A DNA stretch of 64,000 bases from assembly GCA_037043015.1 (NCBI GenBank), contig CM073329.1, forward strand, positions 13,222,648 through 13,286,647, given 5' to 3'. Under the pieces are notes generated by a model. It saw nothing but the letters and a program-made list of their open reading frames with translations. It searched no databases and had not been told where the DNA came from. Below are positions 7,482 to 64,000 of the stretch, piece after piece. This DNA comes from Bryum argenteum (taxonomy: Eukaryota; Streptophyta; Bryopsida; Bryales; Bryaceae). The position numbers were made by a program, and so were the translations under genes. Positions within the stretch are counted from its first letter, which is position 1; every line of letters starts with the position of its first letter.

Positions 7482-7535
7482 CATATTTGACTGCATGGTC
7501 AAGGGCTGTATAGAAAGCTTCGATTTGTAGCAGCC

Positions 7536-9307
7536 ATGAGGACATCATGGGCTCTCGGGGTGACCATGGTACTGGCAGTACTTGTGGTGGCGGTGACCGC
7601 GAAACCATGGCCAGCGCCAGATTTTAAGAATTGTATCGACTTGCCGATCGAGAGCTGCTGCACACCAGTTCTGTACAATGGCACCGCCAGAAAGTTCACA
7701 TACCAGTCATGGTTACCGATGCGTACCCGCCCGGCCGCGCATCTCGTGGACGCCGCCTACACAGCGAAGATCCAGAAGGCTTACGCTCTAATGCGGGCGC
7801 TTCCAGACACTGATCCGCGCTCATTCAACAACCAGGCGAAGCTGCACTGCGCGTACTGCGATAACCACTTCTTTTACCCGGAGTACCCGAACTCCCGTCT
7901 GGAGATTCACCGCAACTGGCTGTTCCTCCCCTGGCACCGCCTGTTCGTGTACCATCACGAACGCATTCTCGCTAAACTTCTGGGTGACGATACATTCGCT
8001 CTGCCCTTCTGGGACTTCGACAACCAGTCCGCTGAGAAGCCCGAAGGAAACACGTATCCGTTACTGTACCGGACCCCCACGGGATTCGGTCCGTTCGGCA
8101 ACAGCTCCGCTTTGTTCGATCCGCTGCGACTTGCTAGCTCGTCGTATCCCCGACTTGTGGACTTCCAGGATCCGTTCCAATTCTATCCCAACAGAACTGA
8201 CGATGATCAGAGGATCAAAAACGCCCATGCTATGTATACACAGATTGTGGCGACACCCGTGTTGCCGACGTTGTTCATGGGTGAGCCGTATCGATATGGT
8301 GATGTTGGAGCTGTTGGCGGCGGGACGATCGAGAACAAGCCCCATGGAAGTATGCATGTTTGGGCGAATCTGATTAAAGCGCAGTTCACGAACTCAGCTT
8401 CTGATCCGGTCTTTTATGCTCTTCATGCGAATGTCGATCGTCTCTGGAAGATCTGGAAGAAGATCCCGGGTGGTGTGAGGAAGGACCCCACTGATCCCGA
8501 CTGGCTTAACACCGAGTTCACGTTCTACGACGAGGATGGCAAGATCGTCACTGCCACCGTCCATCAAGCCCTCGACACGAATCTCCTCAGGTCCCATACT
8601 CTGCCCTCGACACAAACCCTCACGAACCCTTGAATCCAATCGTAATGGATCCTCTTGTTGATGGTTGTACTGATTGCATCTTTTATTGATCAAGTGGAGT
8701 TGACTATTGTTACTCATTTGGTAAATGGTCGGGTGCCAGGTACAAGTATCAGAAGGTGCCGATTCCGTGGGTGCGAAAGGGCGCAGTGGAGCCAAAGACG
8801 AAGGGTACACAGTGGGCGCCATGCAGTTCCCACAACACATCGGCAGCGATCGAGGCGTTGATTGCTGCAACCCCAGAGTTCAAGGCGCCATTGAACTACA
8901 CTAATTTCACGCCTCTCACATTCAAGCTCGAGAGACCAGCACCGTTGCCTTCATATATGGGAGAGGAAGTTCTGGAGATTCGCGGAAACAAAGTGAACTG
9001 GACGGAAGCGTCGGAGTGGATGGCGTACTTGTACATGCCAGAGGCTCAGTGGCATACGTCCGTAAGCTGCCCCGAGTGGTTGGGAGTGCTTGGAGATATC
9101 CCGCATATCGGCCAGCCCCCGAATCAGAAGGATACCATGATCTGGCGCGTGGGACTTCGACAGAAGCTCGCAGATGTGCACCAGAAGTATGCTAAGCATG
9201 TTGTGGTGACACTGGCGGGTCCGACTGGCGGTCCTCCTGGTCCTGGCGCGCCTCCAGATCAGCCCTTCATGCTCACTAGCGCCAAGATTGTCTACCAGAA
9301 GTCCTGA
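7536..9307 (+). CDS. PPO: polyphenol oxidase (tyrosinase/catechol oxidase), secreted
   Basis: This binuclear type-3 copper enzyme oxidises phenols to quinones. Exons are 7536-8590 and 8740-9307, joined by a 149-bp GT-AG intron (phase 2) that fuses the frame into 540 aa. CuA ligands are H104 (HCAYC, with C108 as the likely thioether cysteine or its neighbour C105), H125 and H134 (HRNWLFLPWH). CuB ligands are H270 and H274 (HGSMH) and H297 (ALHANVDRLW). A DWL-type motif follows at about 330, then a C-terminal domain from exon 2. The N-terminus (residues 1-22) is a hydrophobic signal peptide, not a plastid transit peptide, so secretion or vacuolar targeting is expected, as in bryophyte enzymes. 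Potential N-glycosylation sites are NGT (48), NSS (189) and NRT (219). The ATG sits in a good context (GCAGCCATG). Nothing is missing; the gene looks intact. Confidence 0.93.
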
Positions 9308-31005: not shown

Positions 31006-34000
31006 TCAAGAACCATATAGCTTGGGATAAGACATACTGAGCTCAATCACTTCGTCCTCCACTTGCTCACGAATAAAATGATGTTGCACATCAATACGCT
31101 TTGTTTCGCGAGAGTGGTGTGGATTCTTGGCCAAGCGCAATAGCTCCTTGGTTGTCACACAACACTTGTGTGCCTTCTTGTTGAACAAAGCCAACATCAT
31201 CCCCAAGAGTTGCCTCAACCAAATGGCTTCCTTGGTACATTGGATCGTGGCCATGTATTCGGCCTCCGTCGTAGAGAGAGTGCTATGGTGGGTCGCTCTT
31301 AGAATTCCATGAAATGGCACCCACTCCAAAGATAAAAACATAACCGGTGGTGGATCTCCTATCTCCTTCATCACCGCCCAATCGCATCACAATAGCCACG
31401 TAGCAACAAATTTGAACCTCCAAGTTGCAACTCTAGCTTAAGTGTACACTTGGAGGTACCTCATCACCCTCTTTTCACCGCCCAATGCATTGGGCCATAC
31501 TTGGACATGTGTTGACTCACAACACTCACGGGAAAGGCCAAATCGGGCCTTGTAGCCACCATGGCATACATATAAGGCACCCAACCGCAAGCCTCAGATG
31601 GCACACTTGCCATTTCAGCCTTCACCTCTTCAAAATCAGCCTCCGTGAGCTTGGGCAACTTCACATGAGTGTCAAGTGGTGTACCTATGGCCTTGCACTC
31701 CTCCATGTTGAATCTCTTGAGAATCTCCTCAAGGTACTTGTGTTGACTCATGGTGATGGTGCGGGCAGCCCTATCTCTCTTGAACTCCACTCCAAGGCAA
31801 AAGCTTAGCTCTCCCAAATCGGTCATCTCATACTCCTCCTTGAGCATAGCCTTCACCTCCAACATCTTGGTCATGCTACTTGCAAGGAGGATCAAGTCAT
31901 CCACATACAAGACAACAATCACAAGAAACTCACAACTTTGCATGATATACAAAGAGTGATCAGCGTGGCCTCTTTGGAAGCCTTTCCTCACAAACATGGC
32001 ATCAATATCTTGATACCATGCCCTCCCGGATTGCTTCAAACCGGGAAGTGCCTTCTTCAACTTGCACTTGAGATGCTCCTTGCCTTGTTGCACAAATCCT
32101 TGGGGTTGATCCATGTAGATGACCTCCTCCAACTTGGGGTTGAGGAAGGCGGTCTTCACATCCATGTTGTGCATCTCAAGGTCCATGGCTGCCCCAATGC
32201 TCACAACACACCGAATTGTGTTGAATTTTGCAACGGGAGCAAATGTCTCATTGAAATCTACCCCCTCCACTTGGGTGAACCCCCGTGCAACCAGCCTTGC
32301 TTTATACCTCACCACATGCCCCAAAGCATCCCTTTTGGTGGAGAAAACCCACTTACAACCCACACTTGATCTATTGGGAGGAAGGGGTGCAAGCTCCCAA
32401 GTGCCCTTGTGAATGAGGGCCTTGTACTCTTCTTCCATAGCCACCTCCCACTTGCTTGCATCTTCACAATTCAGCACCTCTCCAAGTGTAGATGGGTCTC
32501 CAAGAAATGCCACATTTGCTTGATCTTCACGTGGTGGAGGAAGAATATGGTTCATCCACCAATCCCCAAGTGGCTTGCGAGTCCTTGTGGGATATCTTGG
32601 CTCCTCATGGGGCTCCTCACGTGGCTCCTCCATGGACTGGTCCTTCTCTTGCTCCTTTGGCAAGCAAGTAGTTGAAATCTTCTTGCGCTGCGGTAACACC
32701 ACCTCCTTCTTGGGCTCCTCCAAATCTTCTTCATCTTCATCTCCCACTTCTTCAATGTCAATTCTTGGAGTTGAGCCCACACTTTGGGTTGGTCCTCCAC
32801 TTCTCCCACTTGGGCTCACCTCCAAGTGTTTAAAATCAGCTCCTCCATCTTCCAAGAACGTCACATCCCTACACTTGATGATGGCCTTGGTGTCCACTCG
32901 CATCAGCCTATAGGCCTTAGTTCCCTCACAATACCCAAGAAAAAGACATTTGATGCCCTTGGCATCCAACTTGGTCCTCTTGGCATTTGGAACCAACGCA
33001 TACGCAATGCAACCAAAAACACGCATATGGGACACATGGGGCCTCACTCCACTCCAAGCCTCTTGAGGTGTCTTGCTTACCAATGCTTGAGTGGGGCAGC
33101 GGTTCCTTGTATACACCGCATTGCTCACGGCCTCACCCCATAGCTCATACTTGAGCCCTTGGCCATGAATCATGGCCCTTGCCATCTCCACAATGGTGCG
33201 GTTTGCACGCTCCGCAACACCATTTTGTTGAGGCGTATAAGGGGCTGATGTGTGGTGCTCAATGCCATGGGCTTTGAGGAAGTTCTCAAATGCCTTGGAC
33301 ACATACTCCCCTCCATTATCCGACCACAGCACCTTCACCTTGCAATCAGATTGGGCCTCCACAAGCGCCTTCCAAGTCTCAAAACGCCCAAACACCTCAC
33401 TTTTGCACTTGAGCATATACACCCATATCTTGCGTGAGAAATCATCTATAAAGGTGACAAAATACCTTGCTCCTCCAATGGAAGTGGTCTTCATTGGCCC
33501 GCACACGTCCGAATGCACCAACTCCAATTTCTTGGTGGCCCTTGTTGCTCCATCCTTGGGGAAGGGCTGCCTTGCTTGCTTGCCCTCAATGCACCCCTTG
33601 CAAGCCAAGGAACTCCAATCGTGCTTGCAAGAAGAGAGGTCCAGCCCCTTAACAATGTGTTGGAGGCCCTTCAAGCTCTTCAAATTCAAGTGCCCAAGCC
33701 TCCTATGCCAAAGATTGACAAGCTCTTCATGGGCTGATCCATGAGCCACACAAGCAAATGAACTCCCATTCACCTTGGTGAATTTGAGTAGGTACAAATT
33801 GCCCTCACGAGGGGCTGATGCAATCAAAAGCCCACTTGGTGACCTCACAACACACCCCACATTGTTGAATTGCACCTTCAAACCTCCCAAAGCCAATTTG
33901 CTTACCGAAAGCAAGTTGGCATGCAACTTGGGCACATGGAGCACCTCACGGATGGTGATCCTCTTGGGCTGGCCCTTGTCTTGCACCTCCACATGCACCT

Positions 34001-34958
34001 CTCCTATGCCAAGTGCTTCCACCATGCCATTGTCTCCCATGTAAATCTTCTTTCCCGTAGTGGATTGATAGGTGTGGAAGGCATCTCGATGGCTGGTCAT
34101 GTGTTGTGTGGCCCCCGAATCGACAATCCAAGTGAACATGTCAGCCTTCTCTCCTCCTCCATGTGTAGCAAAGGCGAAATCATCTTCATCCTCCACTTTG
34201 GAAGCTTGATGTGCACTCTCCTTGCCTTGAGCTTGGTTGGCCCTACAAAACCGAGCAATATGGCCTAGTTTGCCACACTTGAAGCATGTTCTTGTGTCCT
34301 TGGAAGCCTTGGTGTTGCCTCCCTTGCCAAATCTTGACACAAGCGCTGATCCCTCTCCATGGGGCTCATTCTCCTTGCGCTTGGTGACCTCATGCATCAA
34401 ACGGGCTGTAACAAACTCCAAGGTCAGCTCCTTCATTGGCCTTGTCTCCAAAGCGGTGATGAGGAACTCAAAGGAGGGTGGTAAGCTCTCCAACAATGTC
34501 ATGACCACATCTCCTTCCGTGACGGGTGCCTCCAAGCAAGCCAACTCATGCGCCAATGCTTTGATCTTGTTGACATGATCCAACAAGTCATCCTCCTCTT
34601 GCATCTTGGTAGTGAAGAAGCGCCGCCGAAGAAATAGGATGTTGGAGAGACTCTTGGTCTAATGGATGTTGCAGAGGGTTGTCCACGCTTCCGCTGGTGT
34701 TTTACAATGGCGGATGTGTGCAATTTGCTGATCCGCAAGATTGGTCACAATGAGAGCAAAAGCCTTCTTCTCCCGCCTCTCAAACGCCTTTTTGGTCTTG
34801 AGATCCGCATCAGCACTTGGAGGCTCCTCACCTCCATCAGCCACATCCCACAAGTCTTTCCCCGCAAGAATCATCTCCATCTTGAACTTCCACATGCCAA
34901 AGTTGACACCATTGAACTTGTCGATGATGCGCACGCCATCTCCTTCACTCGCAGCCAT
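31006..34958 (-). pseudogene. copia gag-pol, interrupted
   Basis: The frame starts at the ATG at 34958 (MAASEGDG) and encodes a gag with a UBN2-type region. A TAG at 34661-34659 interrupts it, after which the same frame runs on to 31464. Downstream of the stop are a zinc knuckle (CFKCGKLGHIARFC), protease IVDSGATQHM, a GAG-pre-integrase segment (LWHRRLGHLN), an integrase core with DNGGEYVS, reverse transcriptase with KARLVARGFTQ and the YVDD box (VVLYVDDLILL), then the frame is lost near 31466. RNase H continues in another frame (TLSTTEAEYMA, about 31260-31310), with the first RNase H aspartate region also broken. The element therefore cannot make a full polyprotein. Confidence 0.92.
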
Positions 34959-49936: not shown

Positions 49937-50267
49937 GCATCTGCGAGCGACCGTATTCGAGTTGGGCCCACCCAGCAGGCGGCGTCCGCACATGGTCCCG
50001 TAGTCTAGTGGTCAGGACATTGGACTCTGAATCCAGTAACGCGAGTTCAAATCTCGCCGGGACCTCTCACGTGCATTTTCCCTTTTCCTTTTGTCTGTGA
50101 AGCTTCCCACCTGATCAAGAGTCCTCGCCGTTGAGCTGACTCTTTGGCGACAGCGCTCGACTACAGTAACCGAAGACCAGGGGCTGACTTGCTGCAGGTC
50201 AAGTCTAATCCTTGCCATCATCGAAGACCTTTATCAATATCTGCGCTTTACGGATATTCATGGCTAC
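49937..50267 (+). repeat. left copy of a ~330-bp duplication carrying a tRNA gene
   Basis: From 'GCATCTGCGAGCGACC' through the tRNA to 'TCATGGCTAC', this block matches 53729-54068, with strong conservation of 'TTGTCTGTGAAG' and 'GAGCTGACTCTTTGGCGACA' beyond the tRNA. A copia element is inserted right at its end. Confidence 0.85.
49994..50065 (+). tRNA. tRNA-Gln (CTG anticodon)
   Basis: A 72-nt cloverleaf. Acceptor arms GGTCCCG and CGGGACC pair fully, with T as discriminator. The D arm holds 'TAGTCTAGTGGTCAGGA'. The anticodon stem TTGGA/TCCAG encloses the loop CTCTGAA with anticodon CTG. The T arm reads GCGAG-TTCAAAT-CTCGC. A T-poor stretch 'TTTTCCCTTTTCC' downstream could be the pol III terminator region. 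It looks functional. Confidence 0.93.
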
Positions 50268-53728: not shown

Positions 53729-54068
53729 TTTGCATCTGCGAGCGACCCCCTTCGGTGACGGGCCCACCCGGAAGTCAGCGCCCGCACCTGGTCCCGTAGT
53801 CTACTGGTCAGGACATTGGACTATGAATCCAGTAACGCGAGATCAAATTTCGCCGGGACATCCGGCGTACATTTTCCTTTTTCCTTTTGTCTGTGAAGTT
53901 TCCCACCTGATCAAGAGTCCTCGCCGTTGAGCTGACTCTTTGGCGACAGCGCTCGACTACAGTAACCGAAGACCAGGGGCTGACCTGCTGCAGGTCAAGT
54001 CTAATCCTCGCCATCATCGAAGACCTTCTCATCTTAAAACCAATATCTGCGCTTTCCGGATAATCATG
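53729..54068 (+). repeat. right copy of the ~330-bp tRNA-bearing duplication
   Basis: This block matches 49937-50267 and continues past the site where the left copy is interrupted, showing the empty sequence 'CATGGCTACATATTCG'. It begins exactly where the truncated LTR ends. Confidence 0.85.
53790..53861 (+). pseudogene. tRNA-Gln pseudogene with changed anticodon
   Basis: This is the duplicate of the tRNA at 49994-50065. The anticodon loop reads CTATGAA, so the anticodon is ATG instead of CTG. The T-loop start GTTC has become GATC. The D-loop GTGG has become CTGG. The last acceptor base pair is lost (GGTCCCG against CGGGACA). The lost T-loop and D-loop contacts argue for a non-functional gene. 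Confidence 0.8.
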
Positions 54069-58360: not shown

Positions 58361-58965
58361 TTAACCCCTAAAGATCCTTGCAAGCCGAATCGGCTTTTTG
58401 ACGTTCTGGTCACCTATGTTGAAGGAGTTAAAAAACAAATTTGGGGTCGAGATTTTTACAGGAGGTGGGGAAACATGTAAGTTCGGTGTGGTAAAAATTG
58501 CAAAGGTAAATTCCTATTTTTGAGCCTAAATTTGCATATTTTCAATTTTCAATTTGGGGAGGGCAGGGTGGGCAGGGTCGAGAACCAACGAGGAGCGAGC
58601 TTGGCAATCGGGCAGTTTTGCCCGTTAGCTCATGTAATTAGATAGGGGCAGGGGGTTTAGAGTGGGCTTAGTCTGAACCCATGATTCTTAGAAGGGAAGG
58701 TGGCAAACAGAATCAGCCTCCCTCATAAATGGTCAATCCGTTGGGGTTATTACCAACATAGCCACCACTTTCGCATGACTGTTGGAATTGCTACAAATTT
58801 GAATTCAAAACCATCAACCAATATTGCAAACGATACACATACAAGATGGAATTCACCTATTGCCTATGTTCCTTGAAACCAAACTTCCATGCATGTACAC
58901 AATGTGAGATTCGGAAAGGAGAACAAGAACATGAGCTTCAGATTGAGAGTACATCGATCCAATAG

Positions 58966-59898
58966 AGAGAAACTAGACAGATCCAATTCCGTAGCTCCAT
59001 AGACAATTTAGATTGCTTGCAAGAAGCTCCTGCAGATTGTAGTGATTGCGGTTTAGTTGCTGTACAGGTATCTGGAAGTGCGAATCTGCAGGATCAGTGG
59101 TTGGAGCCACGGCGGCAGCTTCACATCGGCATCGGCCTCCCAGCAGCAAATCTTGTACGCAGCAGTGCGAATCAAGGTCACCGTTTTCCATCGACAGGCA
59201 GCAAGAGTGTGGCGGGCGGTGACCCAACGGAGCAGAGAGGGCTTGCCGAAATCGTGGGAGACACTGACCGTCGGGTCCAGCGCGTGCTCGGAAGTGGCAG
59301 AGAAGGCACGGAGCACCGAAGGCTCGCCGAAGTCGGTGAAGATGCGACGGCAGATCTCCCAAGTGCTGACGCGGAGGTTCAGATTGAACTTGTGGTGAGG
59401 ACGAAGTGCGGCAGATTCGGCGAGGATCTGGAGGTGCGGTGCGGCGACCCAACGGAGGTCAACGTCAACCTCGACTGGATCGATCCATCGGAGCAGGCAG
59501 CCCAATCTGCAGATCGGCAAGTGGTGCAGCAGACCGGCCTCGACTCTCCCTTGGACCAGACCGGTGATGCAGCCGGTGGTAGCTCTGCTGGAACAAAGCG
59601 TGCTTGGGCAGCGACTGCATCCAAAATTGACCTTCAAGCTAAACAGCAGCTGCGTGCTTGGGCAGTTGGAAGAAATCTTAGTGAAGATCGAATTTGTCGA
59701 TTATTGTCTTTGCTTGATCCCTCATATCTTTGTAGTCTTCCTGTGAGGAAAAAGAGTAGAAAGTGGCCTACAAATCCACAAGCAAATACATTTAGGCACC
59801 ACTTCTACCGCCAAGCTGCACATGTTTTAGGGTGGAAAGAACAACACAATTTTGATCCCGAGTTCCTCAACATTGTAAGATCGGTTTGGCAAGACTAA
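58966..59898 (+). CDS. piggyBac accessory ORF1, function unknown
   Basis: The frame is open from 58966 to the stop at 59896-59898 but contains no ATG, so it needs an upstream exon or a non-AUG start, or is not translated. The first two thirds are charged, rich in D, E, G and Q. The last about 100 residues look like a folded domain: 'KQQLRAWAVGRNLSEDRICR', a basic 'VRKKSRKW', then 'FRHHFYRQAAHVLGW' and 'FDPEFLNIVRSVW'. The spacing of basic and aromatic residues could suit DNA binding, but no family is recognised. A comparable open frame exists on the opposite strand (59053-59637) because the region is GC-rich, which lowers confidence. Confidence 0.4.
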   Translation, partial: RETRQIQFRSSIDNLDCLQEAPADCSDCGLVAVQVSGSANLQDQWLEPRRQLHIGIGLPAANLVRSSANQGHRFPSTGSKSVAGGDPTEQRGLAEIVGDTDRRVQRVLGSGREGTEHRRLAEVGEDATADLPSADAEVQIELVVRTKCGRFGEDLEVRCGDPTEVNVNLDWIDPSEQAAQSADRQVVQQTGLDSPLDQTGDAAGGSSAGTKRAWAATASKIDLQAKQQLRAWAVGRNLSEDRICRLLSLLDPSYLCSLPVRKKSRKWPTNPQANTFRHHFYRQAAHVLGWKEQHNFDPEFLNIVRSVWQD

Positions 59899-59902
59899 TA
59901 AA

Positions 59903-62621
59903 ATGCCGAAGCGTCGATCGCACAAAAGGGGGAAGCAGGTAATCTCTAATTCAATGACATACAAAAGTCATGAGAATTGAGTGTCCAACTTACGATGACT
60001 TTGTATCTTGTTCTTGCTAGATGGAGTGGGATGGGATTCCAATTCGCAAGAGTGGAAGATTGCAGCGATCTCCACCTCCAAGCCCACCTCCACCAGATTC
60101 CCCACCTCCTGAAGTTCACGTTCATGTTCCAATCACAGATCTCCCTGACTTTGGATCTGGCGGTCTAATGTTCCAATTCAATGATACAGATGAAGCATTC
60201 GATGGTCATTACTTGATGTCACAAGAACCTCCTAGCATTGAGTATGCTAGTGATGAATTCCTATGCTCGCATGAATCTGACACTAATCTTGAAGGAGGCG
60301 GTCTAGAAGACATATTGTGGCCTCCGGAGATGCTTCTGCAGGCAAGAAACTATGGAATGAAACGATCGAAGAGGGCGCTGGAGAGTGACACAAGTTGCTT
60401 GGACGAAAATGAATCTGCAATTCGAGCGTTACGAGCTGTTGAACGGGCAGGAGGTGCGGGATCGAGCGCCGAAGGCGCCCTGGCAGGAGTCGCCGAGCGC
60501 GCTGAAGTTTTCGCCGAGGTCGCCTCTGCATGCGACATGGGGAGTTACGGGCTCGAGGGCATCGGAGGCTGCCCAGATTCGGCGACTGCAGGACTGCCGC
60601 GCGGCGCGCGATGGGCGGACTTCTCCAACTAGCGGGAGGGGTTCGGCTCTTTGGCCGGGTACGTTTTGCAGGGGCTCAGCCTGCCTGGCGAGGCCGTATG
60701 TGTCCCTTTACCGGCCGCGACTGCTCCCTTACCGGCTGCCCCCATACCGGCCCCGCATGCTGCTGCAGAGGAGGCTGGAAATTCGCTGCCCTTCTCCACC
60801 CAGACAACAGGTACGTATCCTAACTGGGACTATTTCACACAAGAAGAAAATGAGATGGAAGAAGAAGATAATAATGAAATTCCATACCGCCGAACTAATG
60901 GTGTAATACAAGGAAATGATAGCGAGGAATGTCCCGAATTTGGTAGTGATTTTGGAAGTGATGGGGAAGATGGAAACATTGGCTTGCAAGATAATCAAAC
61001 CGGTCTAAAGTGGGAATTTAGGGACGAAACGTGGAAGGATTCAAGTTTCTACTACCAACCCAACCCTTTGCCTTTTAGTGGAAGACCAAAGGGTCCTTCC
61101 ACAAACTACCGTGGTGTTCCAACTTTCAAGACCTTGTTTGCTCTTTTTTGGACCCCGGTCATGTTGCAGTCCATTGTAAGAGAAACCAACCGCTATGCCA
61201 GTGAACCACTAGATGATCAAGGTAATACAAAAGGAGGCTCTAAGTGGGAGGATATGACTGTCAATGAACTAAAGGCATTCATGGCACTAGCAATTTACAT
61301 GGGTTTGAAACACCAACCTAACTACTACACATATTGGATGCAAAATAAACTATTTCGATGCCCCGTGATTTCTTCTATCTTGACTAGAGCTAGGTTCCAA
61401 GCACTTAGAAGATGCCTACACCTAACTAACATGCATGGAGTTTCTAGAGGTGACCCGGGCTATGACAAAATAGGACAAACTAGATGGCTTGTAGATGCAA
61501 TTAGAGAAAGATGTAAATTGGCATGGTGTCTTGGTAAGTATTTGACCGTCGATGAAATGATGATCCGCTACAAAGGTACGTATTCCCCTATCCGTCAATA
61601 CATGCCTAAAAAACCCCAAAAATGGGGCTTGAAGGTATGGTGTCTTGCTTGCTCCATTTCAAAATATGTGTATAACTTTGAAGTATATTGTGGTAAAGAA
61701 AACATTGTTCTACCTTCTCTTGGTGAAACTGTTCAACATGCTCCTACAATTGGTGAAACTAACTTAGCCCAAAATGTAGTTATGAGGCTAGTTGAGGGTC
61801 TTTGGAATTTAGGACATTGCATCACTATGGACAATTTTTTTTCGAGCATTAGCCTATTCACCTCTCTTCTAGCACGTGGCATGTATGCTACAGGTACAGT
61901 TAGGCAAAACCGTATTGGGCTTCCCACAGATTTGAAGAACTTGGGAGCATTCAAGAATGTGCCTCAGGGCACCACTCTATGGAGAATGCATGTAAGTCGT
62001 TCCATTTCTTCTCTAATGTGGAAAGATAAAAAAACTGTTCTACTAATTTCTACTCACAGCATGCCAATTCAAGCTCCATGTGAATTCCCTGTTGTTACGG
62101 TGCCTCGCCAAAATGGTGCTATTCGGGAGTTGGTTCAAACTTCTCCTATGTTGAAGGAATACACCACACACATGCGCGGGGTGGACGTAGCGGACCAACT
62201 CCGGGCCTCTTACTCATGTCAGGTACGAAGCCACAAGTGGTGGCATTGAATCTTCTTCTTCCTGTTGGATGTCACCGTTGTAAATATGTATATTTTTTAC
62301 TTGGAATGTGTGGCAAACTATAACCCTCGCAAGCCGGTCACTCCAATGACGCATCTCCAGTTCAAGCAAGGTCTATGTGAGTATTTATTAGCAGATTGGC
62401 CAAAAAGAACACCACAACCTGCAAACATCATCCCGGGACCACACCGACCGATAATATGTGTTCCTACTCATACCACATTACGTAGACAATGTGTTGTATG
62501 CAAGGTGAGGCAACCACATTATTTTTGTCGTAATTGTGGTGACAAATGGATGTGTCTAAATGAGGGTTGCTATGAGAGGTGGCATACGGCTTTGGCATTA
62601 CGACGGCAACAACAACATTGA
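59903..62621 (+). pseudogene. piggyBac transposase with N-terminal extension, two in-frame stops
   Basis: A first exon (59903-59938, MPKRRSHKRGKQ) splices through an 82-bp GT-AG intron to 60021. The frame then runs, with TAG at 60630-60632 and TGA at 62247-62249, to a natural stop at 62619-62621. The N-terminal part is acidic and proline-rich. The catalytic domain (DDE_Tnp_1_7 type) has its three aspartates at 61551 (LTVDEMMIRYKG), 61830 (ITMDNFFSS) and 62184 (MRGVDVADQ). 'WKWEDMTVNELKAF'-like helices precede it (KWEDMTVNELKAFMALAIYM). After the TGA, a cysteine-rich zinc-binding tail (CVVCKVRQPHYFCRNCGDKW) is typical of piggyBac. The TGA replaces the arginine expected after 'HKWWH'. The transposase cuts and pastes at TTAA and leaves no footprint in this superfamily. 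Confidence 0.88.
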
Positions 62622-62699
62622 TTATAGGTACGTTCCCAAAAAAATTTCTATTTCCCTTTCAAATTACTTCTCAAATTCTTTGCATTTTCAATTACATGC

Positions 62700-63187
62700 A
62701 CTCATACAATTTTTGCTTTGCCTTTTTTTCTTTGCATTTTTTTCTTTGCACTTGTTTCTTTGCATTTGTTTCTTTGCATTTTTGCGTTGCATTCTTATCT
62801 TTGCATTTTTTTCTTTGCATTTGTTTCATGGCTTTTCTGTCTTTGCATCTTTTTCATTGCATCATTTTCCTTTGCATTTGTTTCTTTGCATCTTTTTCAT
62901 TTGAACTTCTTGCTTTGCATTTTTTGCTTTGCATTTTTTATTTGCATTTGTTTCATTGCATTTTCGTCTTTGCATCTTTTTCTTTGCATTTTTTTCTTTG
63001 CATTTGTTTCTTTGCATCTTTTTCATTTCCATTTTTTGCTTTGCATTTTTTTCTTTGCATTGTTTCATTGCATTTTTTCCTTTGCATTTTTTTCTTTGCA
63101 TTTTTTTCTTTGCATTTTTTCCTTTGCATTTTTTTCTTTGCATTTTTTTCTTTGCATCCTTTTCTTTGCATTTTTTTATTTGCAAAC
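62700..63187 (+). repeat. TTTGCATTTTTTTC satellite inside the piggyBac element
   Basis: About 35-40 head-to-tail variants of TTTGCATTTTTTTC (12-15 bp) start right after the transposase stop. Long open frames on both strands here (FFAFFSLH or KKMQRKKC repeats) are by-products of the repeat. Confidence 0.88.
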
Positions 63188-63557
63188 AGGGGTCACTATT
63201 AGCCCAATCTTCAGAAATAAAGTGACTGAGGCAGGAGCCACTGCGAACTGGAGTGGCCAGGAGCCAGCGGCTTTTACCGGCCTTCGGGTTGCCGGCCACT
63301 CACGGGCGAGCTGCTAGGACTACTCTACACGGCAACCGGCAACGGTGGAAAGGCAACCCCCCTGCAGCTGCGGCCACCCAACGGACCTGCTAAATGAACG
63401 GAGCTGGCAACAGCAGATCGGAGCTGCATTGCCCAAGCTGGCTTGACGGCATCGGCCTCCCCTGGATCGACAGCTGGAGCGGCGCCCTCCCAATCTCGGC
63501 ACCATCGCTGACCTTTATGCTCATGTTCACTCCCCATATTAGACCCCCTTTTGCATC

Positions 63558-63565
63558 TATAAATA
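63558..63565 (+). promoter_or_regulatory. possible TATA box in the piggyBac right arm
   Basis: TATAAATA is set in GC-rich sequence (63190-63680) with no gene in the remaining 435 bases of window. If real, transcription would run rightward out of the element. The motif alone is weak evidence. Confidence 0.3.
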
Positions 63566-64000
63566 CCTTGGCCCCACAACTGACAATCTTTCAAAGCTGT
63601 AGTTATTACTATAGTCCTTCCAATCAGTAATTGATCGAATGGGCCCGGGGAAAGAATGAGAGACCCCAGAATCACATGGCTGCCCACCTTGTATTACACT
63701 ATATTCTCTTATACATGGCTTCGATAATTCATAGAAATTTGAAATTTTGAAATTTTTCAAAAAAATTTGGATACAAATTTCCATCACTCATAAGGCAAGA
63801 ATGCCACTGTTCAGTTTCTTGAAATTCAAATTTTTCATTTTGTGACGCAAGTTTTATCCTAAACAAGGTACAAACTGTAGTTTTTGACCTCCGGTTACGC
63901 CACAATTTTGATGAGGGTTCAAAAGTCCAAATCGACGCCCAAAATTTTGCATGAGTATACTCAACTTGGTCTCCCACATGAAAAAAAATTTGAGCATGAA

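What the first reader, a model, noticed from the sequence alone, without database searches (positions are those of the whole stretch)
58365..64000. Large piggyBac element with accessory reading frames in a land plant
The sequence shows a TTAA-anchored element with a DDD transposase, a cysteine-rich tail, a spliced N-terminal exon and a separate upstream frame (ORF1). piggyBac is well known in animals but little described in land plants, and a second gene is not part of the standard element. The accessory frame plus the acidic N-terminal extension could be a plant-specific two-component organisation, as PIF/Harbinger has. The two-component idea is inference.
Basis: partly seen in the sequence, partly recalled or inferred. 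Interest (0 to 1): 0.8.

Follow-up and report, generated by a model that had tools for sequence, protein, structure and literature searches.

The report
Plant piggyBac transposon with second protein
This is a worn-out copy of a piggyBac-type jumping gene in a plant genome; its relatives there carry, next to or fused to the cutting enzyme, a second conserved protein part that the best-known insect element lacks.

Summary
A piggyBac-superfamily element starts at 58365 beside TTAA. DDD triad, Cys-rich tail, 36-nt first exon and 82-nt intron are present. This copy carries two in-frame stops (60630, 62247).

The upstream frame is real in its last ~95 codons (59611-59895). The same domain lies upstream of the transposase in 21 of 21 loci read (two of them over 6 kb away) and in at least 84 of 116 scored loci. 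In 10 of 10 copy pairs tested it shows purifying selection. In the window's subfamily the transposase ATG sits exactly 16 nt after ORF1's WPD-type codon, one frame over, in 9 of 9 copies. In sister elements the domain is fused in frame to the transposase. So the two form a linked pair: two overlapping genes here, one protein elsewhere.

ORF1 is predicted as a small helical domain without a convincing family match. Its second half shows a weak, above-chance resemblance to the P2X7/KolX "ballast" domain, an accessory protein of some transposons. Function is inferred.

The parts
58361..58364 (.). TTAA target site, left copy
   Evidence: right copy at window-equivalent 64291-64294
58365..58380 (+). 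Left terminal inverted repeat CCCCTAAAGATCCTTG; its partner ends at window-equivalent 64290, outside the window
   Evidence: 15 of 16 bases match
58365..64000 (+). piggyBac-superfamily element (part inside the window; whole element 5,926 bp)
58966..59610 (+).
59611..59895 (+). ORF1 conserved domain (~95 codons, predicted helical, WQD at its end); stop TAA 59896-59898
59903..59938 (+). Predicted transposase exon 1, ATG exactly 16 nt after the start of ORF1's W codon, +1 frame, basic peptide MPKRRSHKRGKQ
   Evidence: ATG at the same place in 9 of 9 subfamily copies
59939..60020 (+). Predicted intron of the transposase gene (82 nt, GT-AG); donor GT at the aligned place (36 or 39 nt after the ATG) in 9 of 9 subfamily copies
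   Evidence: no RNA data
60021..62621 (+). Transposase exon 2 (acidic N-terminal region, DDE domain, Cys-rich tail), interrupted by TAG 60630-60632 and TGA 62247-62249
61545..61562 (+). First catalytic D motif (TVDEMM)
61824..61841 (+). Second catalytic D motif (TMDNFF)
62172..62198 (+). Third catalytic D motif (MRGVDVADQ)
62490..62585 (+). C-terminal cysteine-rich stretch
62710..63184 (+). 14-bp tandem repeat (TTTTTTCTTTGCAT, 33.9 copies) in the 3' non-coding part of the element

Best explanation
A decayed member of an old piggyBac lineage, abundant in this plant genome, whose mobile unit codes for two linked products: a DDD transposase and a small helical ORF1 domain. Shown: the ends and target site, the transposase motifs, the conservation and co-inheritance of ORF1, the fixed overlap of the two frames (transposase ATG one frame over, right after ORF1's WPD-type codons), and in-frame fusion in sister elements. 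Inferred: that the two are made as separate proteins in the window's subfamily, from one transcript (by leaky scanning or re-initiation) or from two, and that ORF1 works as a subunit of the transposition complex, for example in binding the ends or bridging transposase molecules, as the fused form suggests.
For: ORF1 domain upstream of the transposase in 21 of 21 loci picked from the upper part of the transposase list before any genome-wide ORF1 result was in: 14 of 21 by tblastn, 20 of 21 by HMM (7 of them trained it), the last, L029, by tblastn and a rebuilt HMM (28.7 bits). At least 84 of 116 scored transposase loci have a scored ORF1 match 1.4-6.5 kb upstream on the same strand. Both ends were read by eye in 14 of the 21 loci, with ORF1 between them in all 14. 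Own-frame pN/pS 0.15-0.37 in 10 of 10 pairs tested, against 1.05-1.75 one base over; Fisher 9.7e-5 to 4.2e-18. ATG at +16 in 9 of 9. Fusion read in L034 (994 aa, own Met) and L032 (1056 aa); C8:13617068/13618709 has one frame length, 1059, for both matches. Domain scores 42.8-60.3 bits in L032-L034, which did not train the HMM. Deep branches of the two trees agree in part.
Against: No RNA or protein data. ORF1 in the window has no Met and no clear 5' exon was found. In the TTAACCCTT family (L010, L011, L018, L023, L027) there is no conserved overlapping ATG; a conserved donor-like sequence sits on ORF1's stop instead, so the layout is not uniform. Off-frame ATG scarcity in ORF1 is modest: 14 seen, about 26.6 expected over 14 related loci (summed), and no single one of these loci reaches P 0.05. 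L013 and L022 have ORF1 over 6 kb upstream, so it may belong to another element there. 32 of 116 transposase loci had no scored ORF1 match (two of them, L012 and L029, do have the domain when read). L029's ORF1 has a stop; of 150 matches, 49 by my count carry stops. L034's frame ends before the Cys-rich tail, and L032 has no Met ahead of the domain, so neither fusion is a perfect gene.
Confidence: 0.62

Rival explanations
1. One protein after all: ORF1 is an N-terminal exon or domain of the transposase, joined by splicing or frameshifting in every family, and the apparent second gene is an artefact of reading genomic DNA.
For: The domain is fused in frame in L032 and L034; in the window a donor-like ATT|GTAAGA in ORF1 is in phase with the exon-2 acceptor (phase worked out by hand); the L010 group has a conserved G|GTGAG on ORF1's stop.
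Against: That in-phase donor has no GT in L019 and L020. The transposase ATG with its basic peptide is held at one exact place in 9 of 9 copies, which a pure fusion would not need. Phases of the L010-group donor and the acceptors looked at did not agree across copies.
Confidence: 0.3
2. ORF1 is a captured host gene fragment or a chance frame carried by some copies.
For: The 5' two thirds of ORF1 differ from copy to copy and lack Met in the window.
Against: The domain is shared by all three deep transposase clades read here and is under purifying selection in 10 of 10 pairs tested. Stand-alone host copies were not looked for separately.
Confidence: 0.04
3. Ordinary single-gene piggyBac with an unrelated neighbour gene upstream.
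For: None found beyond the usual single-gene layout of animal piggyBac (PMC12732532, PMC10140906, passages read).
Against: ORF1 lies between the ends in 14 of 14 loci with both ends read and overlaps or abuts the transposase frame.
Confidence: 0.02

Closest known systems
piggyBac superfamily (Trichoplusia ni piggyBac, bat piggyBat)
   Same: TTAA target site, TIR beginning CCC, PF13843 DDD transposase, C-terminal Cys-rich stretch
   Different: 5.9 kb against 2.1-3.5 kb in beetles and 1.4-3.5 kb in bees, a conserved second coding region, predicted spliced transposase start; the bee and beetle elements are described as single-ORF (PMC10140906 and PMC12732532, passages read)
Kolobok (Kol0 lineage) with KolX, and the few piggyBac families said to encode a KolX-like protein (PMC9587614, section 12 and passages read)
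   Same: TTAA elements with a DDD/E transposase plus an accessory protein; ORF1's second half resembles the P2X7/KolX ballast C-terminal part, without its cysteines, as reported for those piggyBac families
   Different: Kolobok is another superfamily with other termini; the resemblance is weak (hhalign probability 33%); the paper's piggyBac sequences are in a supplement that I could not see
PIF/Harbinger with ORF1 and transposase
   Same: Two coding regions in one cut-and-paste element (PMC2528002, passage read; Myb-like nature of ORF1 recalled)
   Different: Other transposase family and target site; ORF1 here has no Pfam match at E 0.1 or better
Teratorn (piggyBac joined to a fish herpesvirus; PMC6431247, passages read)
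   Same: piggyBac transposase with extra genes
   Different: 41-182 kb and viral; no such genes were seen in the frames of this element

Membership tests
piggyBac superfamily | TTAA target site at both ends | tested here: met
piggyBac superfamily | Terminal inverted repeats beginning CCC | tested here: met
   15 of 16 bases
piggyBac superfamily | PF13843 DDE domain with DDD triad | tested here: met
piggyBac superfamily | C-terminal cysteine-rich domain | tested here: met
   motif recalled and seen by eye, not scored by a family model
piggyBac superfamily | Precise excision and active transposition | not testable with these tools
   this copy has two in-frame stops; a related family has 58 ORF1 matches of equal score and two copies 99.84% alike over 4.3 kb, which suggests recent movement
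Canonical single-gene piggyBac organisation | Transposase is the only conserved coding region | tested here: not met
PIF/Harbinger two-component element | Harbinger transposase, three-base target site and Myb/SANT-like ORF1 | tested here: not met
P2X7/KolX ballast (PF20478) | Score over the family's HMM threshold | tested here: not met
P2X7/KolX ballast (PF20478) | Zinc-binding cysteine clusters | tested here: not met
   alignments, by eye, against the consensus in PMC7016195 (passages read)
P2X7/KolX ballast (PF20478) | Same profile and fold in the C-terminal half (helix with RxxxYRQ, helix with IRxx[F/Y]P) | tested here: inconclusive
   hhalign P 4.6e-4, 0 of 400 permuted profiles reach it; helix register agrees by eye with a low-confidence ballast model; no ballast row among the Foldseek and VIA rows shown

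The most novel reading that the evidence does not exclude
A plant piggyBac lineage in which a cysteine-free relative of the P2X7/KolX ballast domain is a required partner of the transposase, made from a gene overlapping the transposase by a fixed frame-shifted start in many copies and fused to it in others. That would extend to plants a domain whose authors could not detect it there (PMC7016195), and give one element lineage in which fused and split forms of a two-part transposase can be compared.
Probability: 0.33. Interest if true: 0.78.

Novelty: new variant of a known kind. Interest (0 to 1): 0.62.

Why it matters
piggyBac is a widely used gene-delivery tool and is treated as a one-protein system. 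A conserved partner, separate in some elements and fused in others within one genome, offers a natural experiment on what a second part does. Overlapping frames in a nuclear plant transposon also pose a testable question of how the second protein is translated. If the ballast resemblance is right, it links accessory proteins of two TTAA-targeting superfamilies (Kolobok and piggyBac).

Tried and rejected
Considered and rejected: ORF1 domain as a chance frame; ORF1 as a Myb/SANT protein (no Pfam match at E 0.1 or better; the weak rows were TEA 0.12, Pet100 0.21 and BH3 0.3, one member each); a general ORF1-to-transposase splice from ATT|GTAAG (no GT in L019, L020); a conserved 5' exon for ORF1 in the window's subfamily (none clear); a +1 ribosomal frameshift site (no conserved slippery stretch seen by eye). 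L033 first looked like a fusion (1290 aa), but it keeps the +16 ATG and a donor-like CAG|GT, so its fusion may be an open intron; I do not rest the claim on it.

Literature: ten searches; in the listings I saw no title or abstract start on a second conserved protein in plant piggyBac. Only open-licence papers are held. piggyBac in plants is not new as such: PMC4438587 Table 2 lists it among superfamilies found in all groups studied, PMC6890710 annotates it in a fern, PMC12477816 in a brown alga; PMC12732532 says 'occasional' in plants, and PMC2528002 (2008) did not list it for plants (passages read in each). The one 'piggybac' passage shown for PMC10619864 (moss) is the word piggybacking.
Full report
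What is there. The window's last 5.6 kb holds most of a piggyBac-superfamily element on the + strand. The left end is TTAA (58361-58364) followed by CCCCTAAAGATCCTTG. The adjoining stretch of the same genome (L009) shows the right end 291 bp past the window: the complementary CCCCTAAAAATCCTTG next to TTAA at window-equivalent 64291-64294. The element is 5,926 bp without the target site. The transposase matches PF13843 at E 1.1e-75 and solved piggyBat at E 3.1e-25, has the three D motifs and a Cys-rich tail, and is predicted to begin in a 36-nt exon (59903-59938) joined over an 82-nt GT-AG intron to 60021. This copy is defective: TAG at 60630 and TGA at 62247 lie in the transposase frame. The TGA breaks the conserved KWWH/IFFF stretch; the TAG lies in a poorly conserved stretch and could be in an unrecognised intron. 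The genome is a 258.8-Mb assembly in 25 pieces. A plant-type polyphenol oxidase gene in the window supports a land plant; that it is a moss is my inference only.

ORF1 is real in part. Its first ~215 codons are not kept as a frame: in the closest copy (C2:13031799) they are 78% identical over 196 codons but carry 2 stops, followed by a frame break, while the last 116 codons are 97% identical and open. The last ~95 codons are another matter. Searching the genome with ORF1 gave 128 scored matches out of 377 candidates, 118 of them without inner stops by my count. Two divergent ORF1 queries gave 150 scored matches each, of 383 and 318 candidates, with overlap, 49 of 150 carry stops by my count. 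The 21 loci read (L009-L029) were picked from the upper part of the transposase list before any genome-wide ORF1 result was in. Of these, 14 gave an ORF1 match by tblastn, L009 itself included, and 20 by HMM (7 of them had trained it); the last, L029, matched by tblastn and by a rebuilt HMM (28.7 bits). L013 and L022 have it more than 6 kb upstream. In the 14 loci whose two ends could be read by eye, ORF1 lies between them. Of all 116 scored transposase loci at least 84 have an ORF1 match upstream on the same strand at 1.4-6.5 kb (lower bound, see the tried field).

Selection. In 10 of 10 pairs of copies that I chose, the ORF1 domain has pN/pS 0.15-0.37 in its own frame, and 1.05-1.75 when the same DNA is read one base over; one-sided Fisher values run from 9.7e-5 to 4.2e-18 on rounded counts. 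dN/dS was 0.10 (L017/L026), 0.30 (L009/L025) and 0.31 (L019/L020); L010/L011 (0.16) rests on 3 changes, and L014/L021 has 2 nonsynonymous and no synonymous change.

How the two frames sit. In the window's subfamily (L009, L014, L019, L020, L021, L024, L025, L028, L030) the transposase ATG lies exactly 16 nt after the start of the first codon of ORF1's WPD/WQD/WQE/WQG/FPD/YPD motif, in the +1 frame, in 9 of 9 copies. It opens a basic peptide (mostly of the type MPxRRxxKRxKQ; L025 deviates) that ends at a GT donor 36 or 39 nt on. The same +16 ATG is in L029, L033 and L022; L016 has ATG at +13 and +16, L017 and L026 at +10, L015 at +13 after a frame slip (read). ORF1 either stops just before this ATG (L009, L025, L028) or runs over it. 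Off-frame ATG codons are scarce in the ORF1 domain (4.1 per kb against 17.0 in the transposase), about half of what synonymous resampling predicts over 14 loci, though no single one of these reaches P 0.05. This fits translation of the second frame by leaky scanning or re-initiation but does not prove it.

Fusions. In L034 the domain is the N-terminus of one 994-aa frame with a Met right before the domain, running into the transposase but ending before the Cys-rich tail. L032 has the same layout in 1056 aa with the tail, but no Met ahead of the domain. A third locus (C8:13617068 and 13618709) shows one frame length, 1059, for both matches and was not read. L033 (1290 aa) also reads through, but may be an open intron. 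L032 and L034 lie in another deep clade from the window, rooted on piggyBat. The TTAACCCTT family next to them (L010, L011, L018, L023, L027) has no conserved overlapping ATG. There ORF1's stop falls inside a conserved G|GTGAG, so splicing to the transposase is possible, but I could not find acceptors of matching phase in all copies. Fused and split forms thus coexist; which is older is not settled (two changes of state on the tree).

Evolution. The transposase tree has three deep clades, and the ORF1 tree (91 columns) recovers one main grouping (L012, L029/L033 and the window's subfamily on one side), with weak support elsewhere; it does not join L032/L034 to the L010 group as the transposase tree does. 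Both are quick trees, and the program warned of long branches. On balance this points to long co-inheritance. There is also exchange: L019 and L020 share their 3' part at 94-96% but their 5' parts, with ORF1, only at 77-79% (synonymous divergence 0.03 against 0.47).

What ORF1 may be. AlphaFold2 on the window's domain with ten database relatives (all unnamed but one 'hypothetical protein', on contigs under 5 kb) gives a confident helical domain (pLDDT 89.2, pTM 0.77). Pfam, PDB sequence and fold searches give no convincing relative. PMC9587614 (section 12 read) led to one test: KolX, the accessory protein of some Kolobok transposons, is a P2X7 ballast domain, and a few piggyBac families are said to encode a protein similar to its C-terminal part, lacking most cysteines. 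Comparing an ORF1 profile (35 sequences) with a ballast profile (120 sequences) gives hhalign score 27.0, P 4.6e-4, probability 33% over 46 colinear columns; 0 of 400 column-permuted ballast profiles reach it (best 23.5). An earlier ORF1 profile had 26.8 (P 7.7e-4), and 24.7 (P 0.0021) with query and template swapped, with 0 of 200 and 0 of 200 permutations above 25.5 (best 20.1). Sixteen comparisons of the two profiles with transposase windows reached at most 15.1. In both predicted structures the RxxxYRQ motif and the IRxx[F/W]-P/Q motif sit in helices at the same register, by eye, though the ballast model is of low confidence (pLDDT 70.9). Against: the comparison was chosen after I saw the motif; the first half of ORF1 does not match; HMMER with PF20478 does not find ORF1; a single P2X7 sequence gave nothing and a three-row profile only P 0.007, probability 5%; the cysteines are absent. 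I treat it as a lead of about even odds.

Mechanism. Most likely the element moves by piggyBac cut-and-paste at TTAA, with ORF1 as a second part of the transposition machinery: made separately from the overlapping gene in this subfamily, fused in others. The partner role is inferred from co-inheritance, selection and fusion. What it binds is unknown; the domain is mildly basic in the subfamily members counted (net charge +2 to +8) but not in all families (-4 in L029).

Novelty. piggyBac in land plants is on record, if thinly (PMC4438587, PMC6890710; passages read). An accessory protein in some piggyBac families is on record in one sentence (PMC9587614). A plant lineage with a conserved overlapping or fused ORF1 did not show in the listings of ten searches of an open-licence library. 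I therefore call it a new variant of a known kind.

Noticed in passing
L009:6711-7735 (window-equivalent 64563-65587): Right beside the element lies a ~1-kb stretch bounded by TTAACCCCTAAATTTCCTTG and a nearly inverted copy: a likely non-autonomous piggyBac derivative.
   Followed up: partly
L019 and L020: Two elements share 94-96% of their 3' part but only 77-79% of their 5' part with ORF1: a recombinant or swapped 5' module.
   Followed up: partly
L030 (C9:4433900-4440400) and L031 (C2:424800-429300): A related piggyBac family with 58 ORF1 matches of equal score; two copies are 99.84% identical over 4.3 kb, one with small indels in the transposase: recent amplification.
   Followed up: partly
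window 62710-63184: 14-bp tandem repeat of 33.9 copies in the 3' non-coding part of the element.
   Followed up: no
window 31464-34658, - strand: A Copia-type retrotransposon reading frame of 1064 aa without inner stops.
   Followed up: no
window 7491-9307, + strand: Plant-type polyphenol oxidase gene in two frames (tyrosinase, DWL and KFDV domains).
   Followed up: no
window 49994-50065 and 53790-53861: Two Rfam tRNA matches (71.4 and 48 bits).
   Followed up: no
L010, L011, L018, L023, L027, end of ORF1: The ORF1 stop TGA falls inside a G|GTGAG splice-donor-like sequence at the same place in all five; no phase-matching acceptor was found in every copy.
   Followed up: partly
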